From the NCBI RefSeq assembly GCF_003258315.1, contig NZ_CP030032.1, forward strand, positions 3,412,501-3,476,500: 64,000 nt of DNA, written 5' to 3'. Shown one piece after another: positions 9,529-15,548 of the stretch. The DNA is from Bradymonas sediminis. Its GTDB lineage: Bacteria > Myxococcota_A > Bradymonadia > Bradymonadales > Bradymonadaceae. A program made the translations under genes and the position numbers. The notes beneath the pieces were generated by a model that did not search any database, had not been told where the DNA came from, and saw only the letters and a program-made list of their open reading frames with translations. How positions within the stretch are numbered: the first letter of the stretch is position 1; each line of letters opens with the position of its first letter.

Positions 9529-11022
9529 TTATCGCCCTGCGTGCGCGCCGATATCTTCAAAGCCCGCAGCCGGGACGAGGAAGTCCGGCGAATTGGGGTC
9601 GGTCGACAGCGGCGTCGGCGTCCCCGATCGTTGCCACGAATTATTGCTCTGGATGCCGCTGTCATTTGCGGGCCGATCCATCTCATAGGCGATATTATTG
9701 CGCAGGGAGGTGTGATCGGCGGCCCAATATCCGCGTCGATTATTCCAGGAGGTATTATGATTGAATTGAACATCCACCCCGGAGTTATGGTCGAAGCCCG
9801 TCGCTTTATTATTATAGGAGAGGCAGTGCTCAACGGTGGTCCGAGCGCTCGGTGACGCGCCGCCCGACTTGATGCCTACGCCGTTGCCATTCTCGATGCC
9901 GTTCCCGTAGGAAATTGAGTACCCCACGTAGCCGTCCTGGCTTCGCCAGGTGTCGATGCCGTCGTCGGAGTTCTCGTAGACAAGGCAATTCTCGACGCGA
10001 TTGCCGATGCCGCTCGAGATCGAAATCCCGTCCGAATTGCCGCCATAGTTATGCTCGGCCCCGCCAATCCCCGCGCCTGAATTGCCGAAGACTTCGCAGT
10101 CGGCGATCAGATTATAATTCGAGGATGGGACGCTATAACTCTCGTGAATGTGGATGCCGCTTAATTTGTTATCATACACCCGCAAGCCCTCAAGGACGTT
10201 ATTGCTGGTGCGCACGCTAATGCCGGCGCGGGCGGCGTTTCGTACCTCAAAGAGCCTGAGCACCACCGGGTCTCCGAGCACCCGAATATAGCTCGAGTCA
10301 TCGATGCTCTGCCCGGTCCCGTCGAGGATCGCGACTTCGCCGGGATAGCTCTCAAAGATCGTCGGCGCCGGCGACGTGCCTCGCCCGCGGAAGCTCAAGC
10401 GGCGGTCCATCGTATAAACACCGCCGCGCATAAAGACGACGTCGCCCGCCTGCGCCTGGTCGACCGCTTCCCAAAGGTCGCAGGGATTCGCCACGGTGCA
10501 GTCTTCGCCCGAGCCATCGGGCGCGGCAAAGATGGTCCCCTGCTCCAAGGGCGTCGGAGCCACTGGACGCGGCCCGAAGGGGCGCGGCGTCGGGCCGGCG
10601 TCCGGCGAGGTCGTGTCGCCCGGCGAGGTCGTGTCGCCCGGCGAGGTCGTGTCGCCCGGCGAGGTCGTGTCGCCCGGCGAGGTTGTGTCGCCCGGCGAGG
10701 TCGTGTCGCCCGGCGAGGTCGTGTCGCCCGGCGAGGTCGTGTCGCCCGGCGAGGTCGTGTCGCCCGGCGAGGTCGTGTCGCCCGGCGAGGTCGTGTCGCC
10801 CGGCGAGGTCGTGTCGCTCGGCGAGGATGTGTCGCCCGGCGAGGTCGTGTCGCCCGGCGAGGTCGTGTCGCTCGGCGAGGTCCCAGCATCGTGTGCCGAA
10901 TTCGCATCGCCAGAAATATCCGACGAGGCATCTGCCCCTAATGTTTGATTCGACTCAGATTCGCTGCCCGAGCAACCTGCGGACGCAATTACAATCATCA
11001 ACGCGGCAATTATCTTGATCAT
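9529..11022 (-). CDS. Parallel beta-helix lipoprotein with TTSPGD repeat stalk
   Basis: This surface lipoprotein of 497 residues has a signal peptide with lipobox ending at Cys17 (IASAGC). A Ser/Asp linker follows, then a stalk of about 16 six-residue TTSPGD units (roughly residues 49-140). The C-terminal 340 residues are a right-handed parallel beta-helix of the pectate-lyase/PbH1 type: GEDCTVANPCDLWEAVDQAQ, GDVVFMRGGVYT, then repeated NxxxNxxVxxN turns such as NRVENCLVYENSDDGIDTWRS. This fold commonly binds or cleaves polysaccharides, but no catalytic triad could be assigned. The repeated stalk probably holds the helix away from the membrane. It has its own terminator and no obvious operon partner. 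Confidence 0.85.
   Translation of the reverse strand: MIKIIAALMIVIASAGCSGSESESNQTLGADASSDISGDANSAHDAGTSPSDTTSPGDTTSPGDTSSPSDTTSPGDTTSPGDTTSPGDTTSPGDTTSPGDTTSPGDTTSPGDTTSPGDTTSPGDTTSPGDTTSPGDTTSPDAGPTPRPFGPRPVAPTPLEQGTIFAAPDGSGEDCTVANPCDLWEAVDQAQAGDVVFMRGGVYTMDRRLSFRGRGTSPAPTIFESYPGEVAILDGTGQSIDDSSYIRVLGDPVVLRLFEVRNAARAGISVRTSNNVLEGLRVYDNKLSGIHIHESYSVPSSNYNLIADCEVFGNSGAGIGGAEHNYGGNSDGISISSGIGNRVENCLVYENSDDGIDTWRSQDGYVGYSISYGNGIENGNGVGIKSGGASPSARTTVEHCLSYNNKATGFDHNSGVDVQFNHNTSWNNRRGYWAADHTSLRNNIAYEMDRPANDSGIQSNNSWQRSGTPTPLSTDPNSPDFLVPAAGFEDIGAHAGR
10602..10889 (-). repeat. 18-bp tandem repeat array encoding TTSPGD
   Basis: About 16 head-to-tail copies of an 18-bp unit (plus-strand unit CGGCGAGGTCGTGTCGCC) lie inside the beta-helix lipoprotein gene. 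Most copies are identical at the nucleotide level. The few variants (GGTTGTG near 10681, GTCGCTCGG near 10815 and 10868, GGATGTG near 10825) are mainly towards the protein's N-terminal side. Whole-unit gain or loss would keep the reading frame and change stalk length by six residues. Confidence 0.95.
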
Positions 11023-11299: not shown

Positions 11300-12709
11300 A
11301 TGCGGATACAAAAGCCCCATCGCATCCGAAAACGCGTCGCGCTTCTCGCAATCATCGCCCTGCAATCGGCCTGCACGGGCGAAACCCAGGCGGGCCACGA
11401 CGCGCGCGACTCGACCTCGTTTGAGCAAGATACGTCGACCGATGGACACACGCTCGACGCGACACCTGCCGATGCCCAACCAACAGAGGATGCCGAGCCG
11501 CTCAACGATGCGGACGCGGCGGGCTCTGCCCCTGACGCAGCAGATCCCCCGGGCGATATTACCTCGCCCGAAGAAGACGCAGGGAGTGATTCCGATGCCG
11601 TTGAGGTTGAGCCGGAAGACGTGGCTCCTCTGGGGCGATGGCAGAGCTATTTCAACACCCCCACCGCCGCCAATGGCTATGAGGACCAAACCCTTCGCGA
11701 TCGCCTGGTGTTGTATTTGAACGGCGCCGTCGCCGGCTCGGAAGTGCGGGCCCATATTACCGAATTATCTTCGGCCAACGCGCTGCGGCCGGTGGTCGAC
11801 GCCCTGGTCAACGCCCACGATCGCGGCGTGAGCATCTGGATGGTTCATAACGGCGACGCCAACCATTTTCCCGAGCTCGCCGCGCGCCTGGGCCCGCGCT
11901 ATGTCCACTGCGGCACGCCGCAAGCCGCCAATAACACGGCGTGCCTGAGCAACGTCGATAACGGCACCCACCATATGAAAAATTGGTATTTCTCCCACAC
12001 CAAGGTTGGGGACGATGACTACCGATATATGGTGATCGCCACCTCCTATAATATCACCGTCACCCAATCGCGCTTTTTCAACGATATGCTGGTCGTCAGC
12101 GGCAATCAGGCGCTGTATGAGGCGCATGTTGAGGTCTACGAAGACTACCTCCAGCAGCGAAAAACCGACGACCGCTACACCCAACCCCACGGCAAGATTT
12201 TTGTCCCTACGGCCGCCACCTATAGCGCCGAGTTCTCGCCGCAAAAGAACGGCGACATGGTCGCCGACGCCCTGGCCCGCATCACCCAATATGAGCCCGG
12301 CTGCACCCTGGGCGTCGGCACCCTTAATTTGACCCGCTCCGCCATCTTCAACCAACTCGAGCGTATCAAAGCCCTCGGCTGCCAGGTGCGCGTGGTCACC
12401 GGCACCGCGCTGAGCGACGAAAAAAAGGCGCGCCTGGACGCCGCCGGCATCCCTCACCGACAGATAAATCGCACGCGAAACGGCCACACCGTCAGCCTCC
12501 ACAGCAAGATGATGGTCTACCGCGGCTATTATGACACCCCGGTCGCCCAGCACCCCAATCATGGTCGCGGCTGGGTATGGACCGGCTCACAGAACTTCAC
12601 GTTCACGCCGCTGAAATATCGCGACGACGTCTTCGTCGGCATCTCACGCGGCGGCGTCACCAACAATTATAGCGACTATTTCGAAGTCATGTGGGCCAAC
12701 GGGACCTAG
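11300..12709 (+). CDS. Phospholipase D-superfamily lipoprotein
   Basis: This exported lipoprotein of 469 residues has a lipobox LQSAC with Cys25, followed by an acidic, low-complexity linker (about 30-110) and a two-lobed PLD-like domain. HxK motifs are visible at FSHTKV (His233, Lys235) followed by TSYN, and at LHSKMM (His401, Lys403) followed by GSQNFT (about 429-434). This is the pair expected for a PLD/nuclease active site. The PLD superfamily includes phospholipases, nucleases and cardiolipin synthases; the exported location favours a lipid or extracellular nucleic acid substrate, but that is inference. The gene stands alone, convergent with the nuclease gene at 12761-14275. The ATG at 11300 starts directly on a typical signal peptide. 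Confidence 0.88.
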   Translation: MRIQKPHRIRKRVALLAIIALQSACTGETQAGHDARDSTSFEQDTSTDGHTLDATPADAQPTEDAEPLNDADAAGSAPDAADPPGDITSPEEDAGSDSDAVEVEPEDVAPLGRWQSYFNTPTAANGYEDQTLRDRLVLYLNGAVAGSEVRAHITELSSANALRPVVDALVNAHDRGVSIWMVHNGDANHFPELAARLGPRYVHCGTPQAANNTACLSNVDNGTHHMKNWYFSHTKVGDDDYRYMVIATSYNITVTQSRFFNDMLVVSGNQALYEAHVEVYEDYLQQRKTDDRYTQPHGKIFVPTAATYSAEFSPQKNGDMVADALARITQYEPGCTLGVGTLNLTRSAIFNQLERIKALGCQVRVVTGTALSDEKKARLDAAGIPHRQINRTRNGHTVSLHSKMMVYRGYYDTPVAQHPNHGRGWVWTGSQNFTFTPLKYRDDVFVGISRGGVTNNYSDYFEVMWANGT

Positions 12710-12760: not shown

Positions 12761-14275
12761 TTACATCAAAACACGAATTACCTGCTCAAGTCGTTTTCGG
12801 CTAAGAATACCCTGTTGGTCGAGGACTGAAAGGTTAAACGTCTGCTTCTTCGTAAGATTTCTCCAGTTTTCGGCCACCCATTTTAAGTCTTCGGCGGTAA
12901 TAACACAGACATCAGCGTCTTGCTGGGATTCGAACTTAAGGCGAAGACAATTCTCTTCAGCAATGTCGTCAACCTCGGGAACGATGACCATAAAACAGGT
13001 CACACGTTTTTCGATGGAATCACGAATATAGCGTTTGAATTGTTTTAAATGAGAGTTCGGAAAGGTATAGATATTTTCCGTTGATTTATTGTCCCACATC
13101 AACAGGGAACCATCGGGCATTTCGATACAGCCATCGGGGTGATCGCTGCCGGGCATTGTCACAAGTTCAACCCCAAGTTTCTCCCTGAATAGGTAGCGCG
13201 TAGCCTCTTCGAATGCTCGCTCAATATCAATATCTTTTGAGATGACCTTGCTTGCCAGAAGATTCTCCCTGTCACGTTTAGCCAACTCAACAAAATACTC
13301 GTAAAAGAGCACTGCGGGATCAGCGTCATCGGGAACTTCTCGAATAAGTAGGTTGTCAAAATGAGAAACAATTCGCTCGAGTCGTTGCTGCTTGGTGCCA
13401 CTTACGTTAACCCCTGGAAGACTTCCACAGATGTTGTAAAGGTCGTCATTCATTAGAGAATTCAACCCTTCACTGGGTTTTATTTCTGCCAAGAGAAGGC
13501 GCTCGGACAATTCGTCCTTACTTCCAGAAGTCGGCAAATTCTGTGCGCGCAGCACGCTGGCGAGGATCGCATTGGTCATGTTCTGCCAAAGTAACTCACG
13601 AGCATTGTCGCTCAGTTCGATGCCTAAAACTTTCTTAACACCGACATGAAACTCTTTGGGTAGAACAACATTGCGGCCATCTTCCGCACGATTGCAGTAA
13701 AATATAATTCCCTGGTGCTGCAAAAACAGAAGTGCTTTTGTGATATCTGCGTAACTGTGAAGTTCTCCACCAGGGGACGGGAACACCCCCATTAGAGCCT
13801 CCACGAGACGTTGTTGCTTCCGCGTAATCTGGAGTTTTTGGCGAAGCCGCTCAATTAGTCCATATTCATCCCGTGAAATGCTTCCGTCATCAAAAGCAAC
13901 TTCAAGCACAGTCCGAAATATGTCGATACTTTGAGCGTCCGTATATTGAAGCGCATTGTCTTTAGCGGCCTCATCGAGCATTCGCTGCTCACGATCACGA
14001 ACCCGCTCACAAAGTTCTCGCTCATCTAGCGCACACTCTGGAATATTCAGCATCACCTCAAGGACATAGTGAACCACAACCCGGGTTGAATGGTCGACAT
14101 CAAACAAATCCAGACGGCGCTCAACATTCTGCGGTTTGGCCAACTCCTCGGCATTGCGTATGATATAATCACGCGCCTCATCTTCTTCGAGACGGCCCAG
14201 GTCTTTTGTGAAACTACTTAATACCCGGGTAAGATATTGTGTCGTCATCTTCGCCGCTGCATCTTCGATACGCAT
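12761..14275 (-). CDS. Putative FokI-like nuclease with TerB-like and SAP-like domains
   Basis: This 504-residue cytoplasmic protein is unlike its neighbours. An N-terminal helical region is followed by a TerB-like segment (FRTVLEVAFDDGSISRDEY, about 120-165), then a SAP-type DNA-binding motif (VLRAQNLPTSGSKDELSERL, about 242-261) and a second SAP-like motif (GSLPGVNVSGTKQQRLERI, about 285-303). The C-terminal domain carries HPDGCIEMPDGSLLMWDNKS, a PD-(D/E)xK pattern with Asp382, Asp396 and Lys398 that recalls the FokI cleavage domain (PDG then DTK). It is therefore probably a DNA endonuclease. No methyltransferase or other restriction component is adjacent. A GGAGG site precedes the ATG at 14275; a GTG one codon earlier is also possible. 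Codon use and base composition look AT-richer than the flanks, which suggests transfer. Confidence 0.7.
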   Translation of the reverse strand: MRIEDAAAKMTTQYLTRVLSSFTKDLGRLEEDEARDYIIRNAEELAKPQNVERRLDLFDVDHSTRVVVHYVLEVMLNIPECALDERELCERVRDREQRMLDEAAKDNALQYTDAQSIDIFRTVLEVAFDDGSISRDEYGLIERLRQKLQITRKQQRLVEALMGVFPSPGGELHSYADITKALLFLQHQGIIFYCNRAEDGRNVVLPKEFHVGVKKVLGIELSDNARELLWQNMTNAILASVLRAQNLPTSGSKDELSERLLLAEIKPSEGLNSLMNDDLYNICGSLPGVNVSGTKQQRLERIVSHFDNLLIREVPDDADPAVLFYEYFVELAKRDRENLLASKVISKDIDIERAFEEATRYLFREKLGVELVTMPGSDHPDGCIEMPDGSLLMWDNKSTENIYTFPNSHLKQFKRYIRDSIEKRVTCFMVIVPEVDDIAEENCLRLKFESQQDADVCVITAEDLKWVAENWRNLTKKQTFNLSVLDQQGILSRKRLEQVIRVLM

Positions 14276-14683
14276 CACTCCCTCCTCCGCAAAACAAAAT
14301 TCCTAAATTTTGGCTATGTAGACAGACTAGCATCGACGATTGAAACGCAAAAGTGACGATTTGGATGAAACAACGCTTCTATGATCTAACGCCCCAATAT
14401 CCCCTCCTAAACGATCACAAACCGAAATAATTTAGCCTACAATCGCTCCAATATCTCAACAACGCCTTGGCCCAAGGCATCGCGGCTCCCACCGTTAGCT
14501 ACAGATAGCTACGAACTCCCAGATAATTCACTGCAGCTATTGCCCTTAGTCCTGTATTTATTCGGTGAACCTAGGTATCCAACTCCCCACACTCGTCTTC
14601 ACTCTTCACTCCAATAATCGTGCGCGGATGTGGGTATTGTTTAACCAACTATGGGAGTTCCACATCAACCAGCCCGATTCACC
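14276..14683. other. AT-richer intergenic region upstream of the nuclease gene
   Basis: About 400 bp lie between the nuclease start and the end of the DUF938 gene. It is visibly richer in A and T than the surrounding genes, like the nuclease gene itself. It presumably holds the nuclease promoter near its left end. No RNA gene, repeat pair, integrase site or credible ORF was found. Confidence 0.5.
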
Positions 14684-15328
14684 TCAGGCCAGTTTTCGCC
14701 ACCAGATCGAGCGGTTATTCGCGGGCATCGCGCGATCCTCGACCCGCTCGAACCCGTGGGACTCGGCGATGGCGTTGACGGCCTCGAAGTCGCGGATGCC
14801 GCTGGCCGGGTCGCGGCGGCGCAGCCAGGCGTCGAAATTCTCGTTGCTCGGCTCGAGCGCGCGATCGGCGTAGCGATAGGGGCCGTAGAGAAAGACGACG
14901 CCGCCGGCGTCGAGGAGGGCCTCGGCGTGGCGAAAGAGGTGCTCGGTGGCCTCCCAGGGCGCGATATGAATGACGTTGATGGCCACCAGTGCGTCGACCC
15001 GCGGGCTGGAAAGCGCGGCATCGAGGCCAAGGGTCTCGGACCAATCATCCTCAAAGAGGTCGAGCGCGACGGGCGGATTGACGTTGGGCAACCCGGCGTC
15101 TTCGACCCACGCGCTCACCGAGTCGAGCCCGCCCGCCTGATTCGACGGCTGCCAGCGAAGGTGCGCCAGGCGCTCGCCGAAATACACCGCGTGTTGCCCG
15201 GTGCCGCTGCCGATTTCGAGGACGTATTTTTTGTCGGCGAAGACTTCTTTAAGCAGCGCGAGGATGGGGTCGCGGTTTCGCTCGCAGGAGGGAGAATAGG
15301 CTTTGCGTTGGGCTAGATTGTCTTTCAT
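14684..15328 (-). CDS. DUF938 SAM-dependent methyltransferase
   Basis: This 214-residue class I methyltransferase-fold protein has the SAM-binding glycine motif VLEIGSGTGQHAVYF near residue 36. The N-terminal signature (AYSPSCERNRDPILALL), an INVIHIAPW segment and a C-terminal NNRSIWWRK are typical of the DUF938 family. The substrate of that family is not established to my knowledge. The ATG at 15328 was chosen because GAGGAA lies six bases upstream and because DUF938 proteins begin just before this signature; in-frame starts at 15367 and 15391 lack a ribosome site. It is a single gene on the minus strand. Confidence 0.88.
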   Translation of the reverse strand: MKDNLAQRKAYSPSCERNRDPILALLKEVFADKKYVLEIGSGTGQHAVYFGERLAHLRWQPSNQAGGLDSVSAWVEDAGLPNVNPPVALDLFEDDWSETLGLDAALSSPRVDALVAINVIHIAPWEATEHLFRHAEALLDAGGVVFLYGPYRYADRALEPSNENFDAWLRRRDPASGIRDFEAVNAIAESHGFERVEDRAMPANNRSIWWRKLA

Positions 15329-15548
15329 CGCGGATTCCTCGGAGGCGGATGTGGTCGGAGCGCTCATCTGCATAAGTTCGGGCGCGCCCACTTCTCAACA
15401 ACACAAATACTCTGGTATCCTATTCGCCGAAAGGATAGAGCGAACACCTGGTCATCGCGCCAGCCAGTTTATCCGCGTCCTGATACGCCGTGTATCGCCA
15501 GAGTTTCCCGCGCGCGCCCGAATTATCTTTCCCTAACGTCTTTTATCT

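What the first reader, a model, noticed from the sequence alone, without database searches (positions are those of the whole stretch)
12761..14275. Orphan FokI-like nuclease fused to TerB-like and SAP-like modules
PD-x13-DxK in a C-terminal domain resembling the FokI cleavage fold is preceded by two SAP-type motifs and a TerB-like helix bundle. I do not recognise this combination. There is no adjacent methyltransferase, so it is not a plain restriction system. The AT-richer gene sits alone among GC-rich genes, as defence genes often do after transfer. It is a candidate single-gene anti-phage or DNA-damage nuclease.
Basis: partly seen in the sequence, partly recalled or inferred. Interest (0 to 1): 0.72.

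Follow-up and report, generated by a model that had tools for sequence, protein, structure and literature searches.

The report
Single-gene FokI-type DNA-cutting defence protein
A bacterial gene encodes one protein that joins a DNA-cutting domain of the FokI restriction-enzyme type to SAP-type DNA-binding motifs; its relatives are patchily spread and often lie beside anti-virus genes, so it is probably an undescribed family of bacterial and archaeal virus-defence nucleases, although nobody has tested it.

Summary
The ORF (14275 to 12761, minus strand, 504 aa) ends in a FokI-type cleavage domain with an intact E356, D381, D395, K397 active site. FokI and the related BspD6I enzymes are the best fold matches (Z about 13). 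Two SAP motifs precede it: the first is clear, the second weak. Upstream lies a helical region with a TerB-like D-x-x-I-x-x-x-E signature; TerB rests on sequence only and the N-terminal fold is unsettled. The gene is the most AT-rich of 44 window ORFs.

Full-length relatives occur in Myxococcota, Gemmatimonadota, Acidimicrobiia, a haloarchaeal plasmid and a haloarchaeal provirus. Only 1-4% of sampled genomes in each bacterial group match, and several copies are broken. Eight of 18 bacterial loci lie beside recognised defence loci (DRT, Hachiman, SIR2/DSR1, Shedu, BsuBI/PstI R-M, EcoRII-C/Dcm/Z1/DUF4420, type IV-like enzyme, CRISPR array). No methylase is a fixed partner. A nuclease-less relative sits beside Z1 and DUF4420 genes, suggesting that the N-terminal part is a portable DNA-targeting module.

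Most likely this is a single-gene defence nuclease, a new variant of a known kind. No defence system adjoins the window copy itself; target and self-recognition are unknown.

The parts
12761..14275 (-). Whole gene: 504-aa FokI-type nuclease with SAP motifs and a TerB-like region (includes stop codon)
   Evidence: ORF and translation; 16 full-length relatives
14279..14287 (-). Likely ribosome-binding site GGAGGAGGG just before GTG-ATG
   Evidence: read directly from the sequence
14036..14275 (-). Residues 1-80, helical N-terminus; residues 44-80 may form part of a winged helix together with 175-219
   Evidence: AlphaFold2 models; winged-helix matches only Z<=6.4 in the domain model, so weak
13790..14023 (-). 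Residues 85-162, TerB-like helix bundle with conserved D130-x-x-I133-x-x-x-E137
   Evidence: Pfam TerB E=0.026, below cut-off; E137 invariant in all 22 rows, D130 in the 20 bacterial ones
13619..13753 (-). Residues 175-219, possible second half of the winged helix
   Evidence: weak
13490..13609 (-). Residues 223-262, SAP motif 1 (LPTSGSKDELSERL)
   Evidence: Pfam SAP_new25 2.9e-5; SAP above cut-off in G038; FAN1 SAP region, 40 aa at rmsd 1.1
13355..13477 (-). Residues 267-307, SAP motif 2 (VSGTKQQRLERI), weaker
   Evidence: second SAP_new25 stretch in the window protein; 286-307 in G038; helical in the model
12764..13348 (-). Residues 310-504, FokI-type PD-(D/E)XK nuclease domain
   Evidence: Pfam FokI_cleav_dom; Foldseek FokI 3.8e-5; VIA Z 13.2-13.5; hhalign to FokI
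13208..13210 (-). E356, helix glutamate aligned near FokI's first active-site helix
   Evidence: invariant in all 22 rows; hhalign
13133..13135 (-). D381 of the HPDG motif, aligned with D450 of FokI
   Evidence: hhalign; identical in 20 of 20 bacterial rows
13085..13093 (-). D395-N396-K397, aligned with D467 and K469 of FokI
   Evidence: D395 and K397 invariant in all 22 rows; hhalign

Best explanation
The gene makes a self-contained DNA nuclease used against invading DNA. The N-terminal half (TerB-like helical region, possible winged helix, two SAP motifs) holds DNA and senses whatever marks it as foreign. The C-terminal FokI-type domain cuts when two copies meet on the DNA. Well supported by sequence and predicted structure: the FokI-type catalytic domain with an intact active site, and SAP-type DNA-binding motifs. 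Supported by genomic context: a defence role. Inferred: cutting needs dimerisation (by analogy with FokI); the TerB-like helices tune activity or assembly; self-protection comes from the kind of DNA recognised (modified, damaged or otherwise unusual DNA) or from an infection signal rather than from a partner methylase, since none is consistently encoded.
For: FokI fold and active site. SAP motifs. Patchy distribution: 8/284 Myxococcota, 12/298 Gemmatimonadota, 3/247 Acidimicrobiia. Neighbouring defence loci at 8 of 18 independent bacterial loci: DRT, BsuBI/PstI R-M, DSR1-type SIR2, Shedu, Hachiman, type IV-like enzyme, EcoRII-C/Dcm/Z1/DUF4420, CRISPR array. In 13 control stretches the listed PADLOC matches were only kinase- and helicase-type models. 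Carriage by a provirus and a plasmid. Broken copies and isolated 3' ends. Low GC. Nuclease-less relative beside DUF4420 and Z1. TerB domains occur in the defence systems Shango and Bunzi (PMC10952713).
Against: No activity has been measured. The window copy has no defence neighbour, and several relatives sit among ordinary genes (L008-010, L012, L066-068). TerB and winged helix are not settled. The control set is small, its last 18 matched families were not shown, and scanning effort differed. In Bradymonad relatives the gene tree follows the family, so recent transfer into this genome is not shown.
Confidence: 0.6

Rival explanations
1. An orphan sequence-specific Type II (IIS-like) restriction enzyme whose methylase was lost, lies elsewhere, or is unnecessary because its site is masked. 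It would bind a fixed DNA word through the N-terminal half and cut nearby.
For: FokI and BspD6I are the closest folds. In G087 a Dcm methylase and an EcoRII-C enzyme lie next to it on the same strand; in L011 a methylase-restriction fusion is adjacent.
Against: Most loci have no methylase neighbour, and where one occurs it comes with its own restriction enzyme (EcoRII-C; BsuBI/PstI). The N-terminal half is conserved across phyla, unlike the fast-changing recognition domains of restriction enzymes (general knowledge).
Confidence: 0.15
2. A DNA-repair or DNA-damage-response nuclease of FAN1 type: SAP motifs plus a PD-(D/E)XK nuclease acting on branched or damaged host DNA.
For: SAP motif 1 superposes on the FAN1 SAP region; N-terminal matches include FAN1 and TFIIH subunits at low Z.
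Against: Found in only 1-4% of sampled genomes per group and repeatedly broken, unlike a core repair gene; neighbours are defence genes, not repair operons. The nuclease domain is FokI-type, not the VRR_NUC type of FAN1.
Confidence: 0.1
3. A subunit that works with Z1/DUF4420 (Mza-like) machinery and is active only when that system is present in the cell.
For: Same-strand neighbour of Dcm, EcoRII-C, Z1 and DUF4420 genes in G087; the nuclease-less relative is next to Z1 and DUF4420 in two genomes.
Against: The window genome has no Z1 protein, and most loci lack the machinery.
Confidence: 0.08
4. A selfish mobile gene, homing-endonuclease-like, that spreads by cutting DNA.
For: Copies 80-93% identical in DNA have unrelated flanks, with similarity ending at the stop codon. 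Isolated 3' ends of 108-211 bp occur in other genomes.
Against: No terminal repeats, target-site duplication or interrupted host gene was seen. Upstream similarity runs a variable 10-300 bp. FokI-type domains are not a known homing class (general knowledge).
Confidence: 0.05

Closest known systems
FokI and BspD6I (Type IIS enzymes; Pfam PF09254)
   Same: Cleavage-domain fold and active-site residues; nuclease at the C-terminus behind a DNA-binding half.
   Different: The N-terminal half has SAP motifs and a TerB-like region; no methylase partner; the FokI dimer residue D483 aligns with K411 or R in most members, although R487 is kept as R415.
Z1/DUF4420 systems (PADLOC Mza; cytosine methylase-linked Z1 operons)
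   Same: A TerB-like/SAP protein without a nuclease is the neighbour of Z1 and DUF4420 genes in G178 and G063; in G087 the FokI-fused protein lies beside such a cluster.
   Different: In the window and most other loci the FokI-fused protein stands alone; the window genome has no Z1 protein.
Shango and Bunzi (TerB-containing defence systems)
   Same: Both contain a TerB domain (PMC10952713).
   Different: No Shango or Bunzi component is matched by this protein; no FokI domain there (general knowledge); the TerB match here is sub-threshold.
FAN1 (SAP plus nuclease repair enzyme)
   Same: SAP-like DNA-binding unit joined to a PD-(D/E)XK nuclease; SAP region superposes over 40 aa.
   Different: Different nuclease family; patchy accessory gene rather than a conserved repair gene.

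Membership tests
FokI cleavage-domain family (PF09254) | Fold of the cleavage domain | tested here: met
   FokI the only Foldseek hit at E<=0.001; Z 13.2 over 159 aa
FokI cleavage-domain family (PF09254) | PD...DxK catalytic residues | tested here: met
   D381, D395, K397 align with FokI and are conserved
FokI cleavage-domain family (PF09254) | Profile score above the curated cut-off | tested here: inconclusive
   22.4 vs 25 bits in the window protein; 31.3 vs 25 in the G038 relative
Type IIS restriction-modification system | Cognate DNA methylase encoded alongside | tested here: not met
   None next to the window gene and none consistent across loci
Type IIS restriction-modification system | Cuts at a fixed distance from a fixed DNA word | not testable with these tools
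   needs biochemistry
SAP domain | Profile match and helix-turn-helix-like fold | tested here: met
   Above cut-off in G038; SAP_new25 2.9e-5 in the window protein; FAN1 SAP superposition. Motif 2 is weak
TerB (PF05099) | Profile score above the curated cut-off | tested here: not met
   15.3 vs 24.4 bits; 14.5 in G038
TerB (PF05099) | TerB fold with acidic metal-site signature | tested here: inconclusive
   Signature conserved; no TerB chain among the listed fold matches
Z1 / DUF4420 (Mza-like) system | Z1 and DUF4420 genes in the same locus | tested here: not met
   No Z1 protein in the window genome; present only near the G087 copy and the nuclease-less relatives
Known anti-phage system in PADLOC (2023) | Significant match to a system model | tested here: not met
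   Only a generic REase_II model at E=0.011

The most novel reading that the evidence does not exclude
The TerB-like/SAP half is a portable DNA-recognition module of a previously undescribed class that pairs with different nucleases: in cis with a FokI domain in this family, and in trans with the Z1/DUF4420 machinery in the nuclease-less relatives. It would tell foreign from own DNA without a methylase.
Probability: 0.3. Interest if true: 0.68.

Novelty: new variant of a known kind. Interest (0 to 1): 0.52.

Why it matters
FokI cleavage domains are known mainly from Type IIS restriction enzymes and engineered gene-editing nucleases. A widespread natural protein that couples one to SAP-type DNA-binding motifs, without a methylase, would be a different solution to telling self from non-self. 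The recognition half may serve more than one nuclease, which would help explain how Z1/DUF4420 systems find their targets. The protein is one gene of 1.5 kb with an obvious catalytic mutant, so the idea is easy to test.

Tried and rejected
Viral contigs: a profile scan with the bacterial family found no relative; the archaeal query returned only a 100%-identical copy of Humcor1's gene. Ion channel as a fixed partner: present in L003, L004, L005 and L017, but these are one related group; the ion-transport gene near the Humcor1 relative matches only around the pore motif, so shared descent of the pair is not shown. Homing or gene-cassette mobility: flank comparison shows gene-only similarity but no repeats or target duplications. 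tRNA-linked integration: no intact tRNA next to the gene; the nearest, tRNA-Asn, lies 4-5 kb away in L005/L017. RNA element in the gene region: none in Rfam. Promoter and terminator scan: promoter-like count at chance level, terminator-like count slightly above it, no usable site before the gene. Solved structures by sequence: no match for the single protein; the profile gave only weak SAP matches and one 14-3-3 match. TerB or winged helix by folding the N-terminal 222 aa alone: only Z<=6.4, inconclusive. Literature: no open-access paper holds FokI, TerB and SAP domain together. PHROGs: no match for the family.

Full report
What is there. The minus-strand ORF 14275-12761 encodes 504 aa from an ATG preceded by GGAGGAGGG. 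The gene is an outlier: GC 0.467 and third-position GC 0.47, against 0.615+-0.035 and 0.77+-0.07 for 44 ORFs of the window. It is the only copy in its 5.05 Mb genome. It converges on a PLD-like protein (11300-12709) and lies 405 bp from a DUF938 gene (14684-15391). Neither is a defence gene, and there is no DNA methylase.

Nuclease domain. Pfam gives FokI_cleav_dom at E=8.9e-5 in the window protein and above the curated cut-off in the 45%-identical G038 relative. AlphaFold2 on 14 family members gave mean pLDDT 82 and pTM 0.77 for the best model; the other four models were at 56-66. Foldseek's only PDB matches with E<=0.001 are FokI. The structural aligner gives Nt.BspD6I Z 13.5, FokI Z 13.2 (159 aa, rmsd 3.5, 18% identity) and R.BspD6I2 Z 10.8 for the C-terminal part, from about residue 310. 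hhalign against the FokI cleavage domain (letters checked against 1fok) puts HPDG on FokI's KPDG and WDNK on FokI's VDTK, E=2e-4, probability 47%. E356, D381, D395 and K397 are identical in all 20 bacterial relatives; E356, D395 and K397 also in the two haloarchaeal ones, where the first aspartate may sit in a shifted loop (ADG).

DNA-binding half. SAP motif 1 (223-262) is supported by Pfam in both proteins, by a 40-residue superposition on the FAN1 SAP region at rmsd 1.1, and by weak profile matches to the THO1 and MKL1 SAP domains. A second motif (267-307) is weaker. The TerB assignment (85-162) rests on E=0.026 and 0.043 and on a conserved D130-x-x-I-x-x-x-E137 signature. Folding residues 1-222 alone gave mean pLDDT 75 and only low-Z winged-helix matches (ORC2 Z 6.4, MarR-type about 5), so neither TerB nor winged helix is settled.

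Relatives. One scan of 84,980 species genomes found 16 relatives, nearly all full-length, 42-67% identical. A plasmid of Natrinema versiforme and the Halorubrum provirus Humcor1 carry 546-aa relatives that align over the full length with about 20% identity; Humcor1 is described as an induced provirus (PMC7911831). Sampled genomes with any match: 8 of 284 Myxococcota, 12 of 298 Gemmatimonadota and 3 of 247 Acidimicrobiia. These counts include nuclease-less relatives and fragments. In the gene tree the window copy groups with relatives of its own family (G204, G087, G038), so its last transfer need not be recent or across phyla. Acidimicrobiia and Gemmatimonadota copies, from different phyla if the metagenome bins are right, are about 72-81% identical in DNA.

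Neighbours. Counting independent bacterial loci once gives 18. Recognised defence loci lie nearby in eight: DRT UG21 (L007, E=2e-118), a BsuBI/PstI R-M fusion (L011), DSR1-type SIR2 (L006, 2e-61) and Shedu (L004, SduA_C above the Pfam cut-off); Hachiman HamA/HamB (L033/G146, 3e-89 and 4e-231) and a type IV-like PLD-helicase (L035/G204, 4e-81); Dcm plus EcoRII-C plus Z1 (MzaC 4e-96) plus DUF4420 (L032/G087); and an 82-repeat CRISPR array with 61-nt spacing (L031/G038). Candidate systems lie in two more: PDC-S11 in L015 and an OLD-like ATPase in L069. Loci without a recognised system include the window, L008-010, L012 and L066-068. As a control, 79 genes from 13 arbitrary stretches, in the same or related genomes, were scanned with PADLOC at E<=1e-15. 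The 25 best families listed, each matched by one member, were kinase-type (PD-T4-6, mad6 and similar) and helicase-type (BrxHI, DruE) models plus SngC; 18 further families were not shown. Counting none of these as specific gives 8/18 against 0/13, one-sided Fisher p about 0.006 (my arithmetic). Scanning effort differed and the control is small, so this is support, not proof.

Decay. The G204 copy has an in-frame TGA near codon 65. In G146 a transposase gene lies inside what is left of the gene, and only C-terminal pieces remain. The G296 copy is read in two frames. Isolated 3' ends of 108-211 bp, ending at the stop codon, occur in G760, G444 and G296 and next to the type IV-like gene of G204. 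This fits a costly, frequently lost gene.

A nuclease-less relative. G178 and G063 encode proteins of about 420 aa with the same helical/SAP part and a third SAP-like motif, but no FokI domain. In both, DUF4420-type and Z1 genes are neighbours (in G063 the DUF4420-type gene was recognised by eye, not by profile). Searching with this protein retrieves the FokI-fused family in turn (E down to 1e-17). The simplest reading is that the N-terminal half delivers a nuclease to DNA, in cis here and in trans there. The window genome has no Z1 protein, so the fused form would have to work without it.

Mechanism. Well supported: FokI-type catalytic domain, conserved active site, SAP-type DNA-binding motifs. 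Supported by context: a defence role. Inferred: the two halves act together as a DNA-targeted nuclease, active as a pair of molecules. FokI's R487 aligns with R415, conserved in the bacterial members, but D483 aligns with K411 or R in most members, so the dimer contacts may not be FokI's. Unknown: what is recognised, and how the host is spared.

Verdict. A real and conserved architecture that matches no PADLOC system model or PHROG and for which no paper was found in the open-access library searched. Its catalytic part belongs to the FokI family by fold and active site. It is not a plain restriction-modification system. It is most likely a single-gene defence nuclease: a new variant of a known kind.

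Noticed in passing
L003:12034-12834, L004:11597-12394, L005:11599-12522, L017:11658-12506: A six-TM ion-channel gene (Ion_trans) lies directly downstream, same strand, in one related group of loci; the Humcor1 provirus also has an ion-transport gene two genes from its relative.
   Followed up: partly
L073:1501-1638, L071:3580-3791, L053:1503-1611, L035:6902-7037: Isolated 3' ends of the gene (108-211 bp, 85-94% identical, ending exactly at the stop codon) survive without the rest; C-terminal pieces outnumber N-terminal ones. Two begin at the same codon in distant phyla. Unexplained.
   Followed up: partly
L073:1465-1500: By eye, a tRNA 3'-end-like stretch lies just before the isolated 3' end in G760, as if left at an integration site; ARAGORN finds no intact tRNA there.
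   Followed up: partly
L030:9226-13826 and L029:2-3118: A gene for a TerB-SAP protein without a nuclease domain lies next to DUF4420-type and Z1 genes in two Myxococcota genomes of different families.
   Followed up: partly
L018 codon 65 (G204:C321:23418-24932): The closest relative (67% identical) carries an in-frame TGA near codon 65 in an otherwise open frame.
   Followed up: no
window 9529-11022 (-): Lipoprotein-like ORF with about 15 tandem GDTTSP-type repeats near its N-terminus, next to the PLD-like gene.
   Followed up: no
L015:8792-9937: 381-aa protein with no Pfam or PADLOC match, directly between the nuclease gene and a PDC-S11 candidate defence gene.
   Followed up: no
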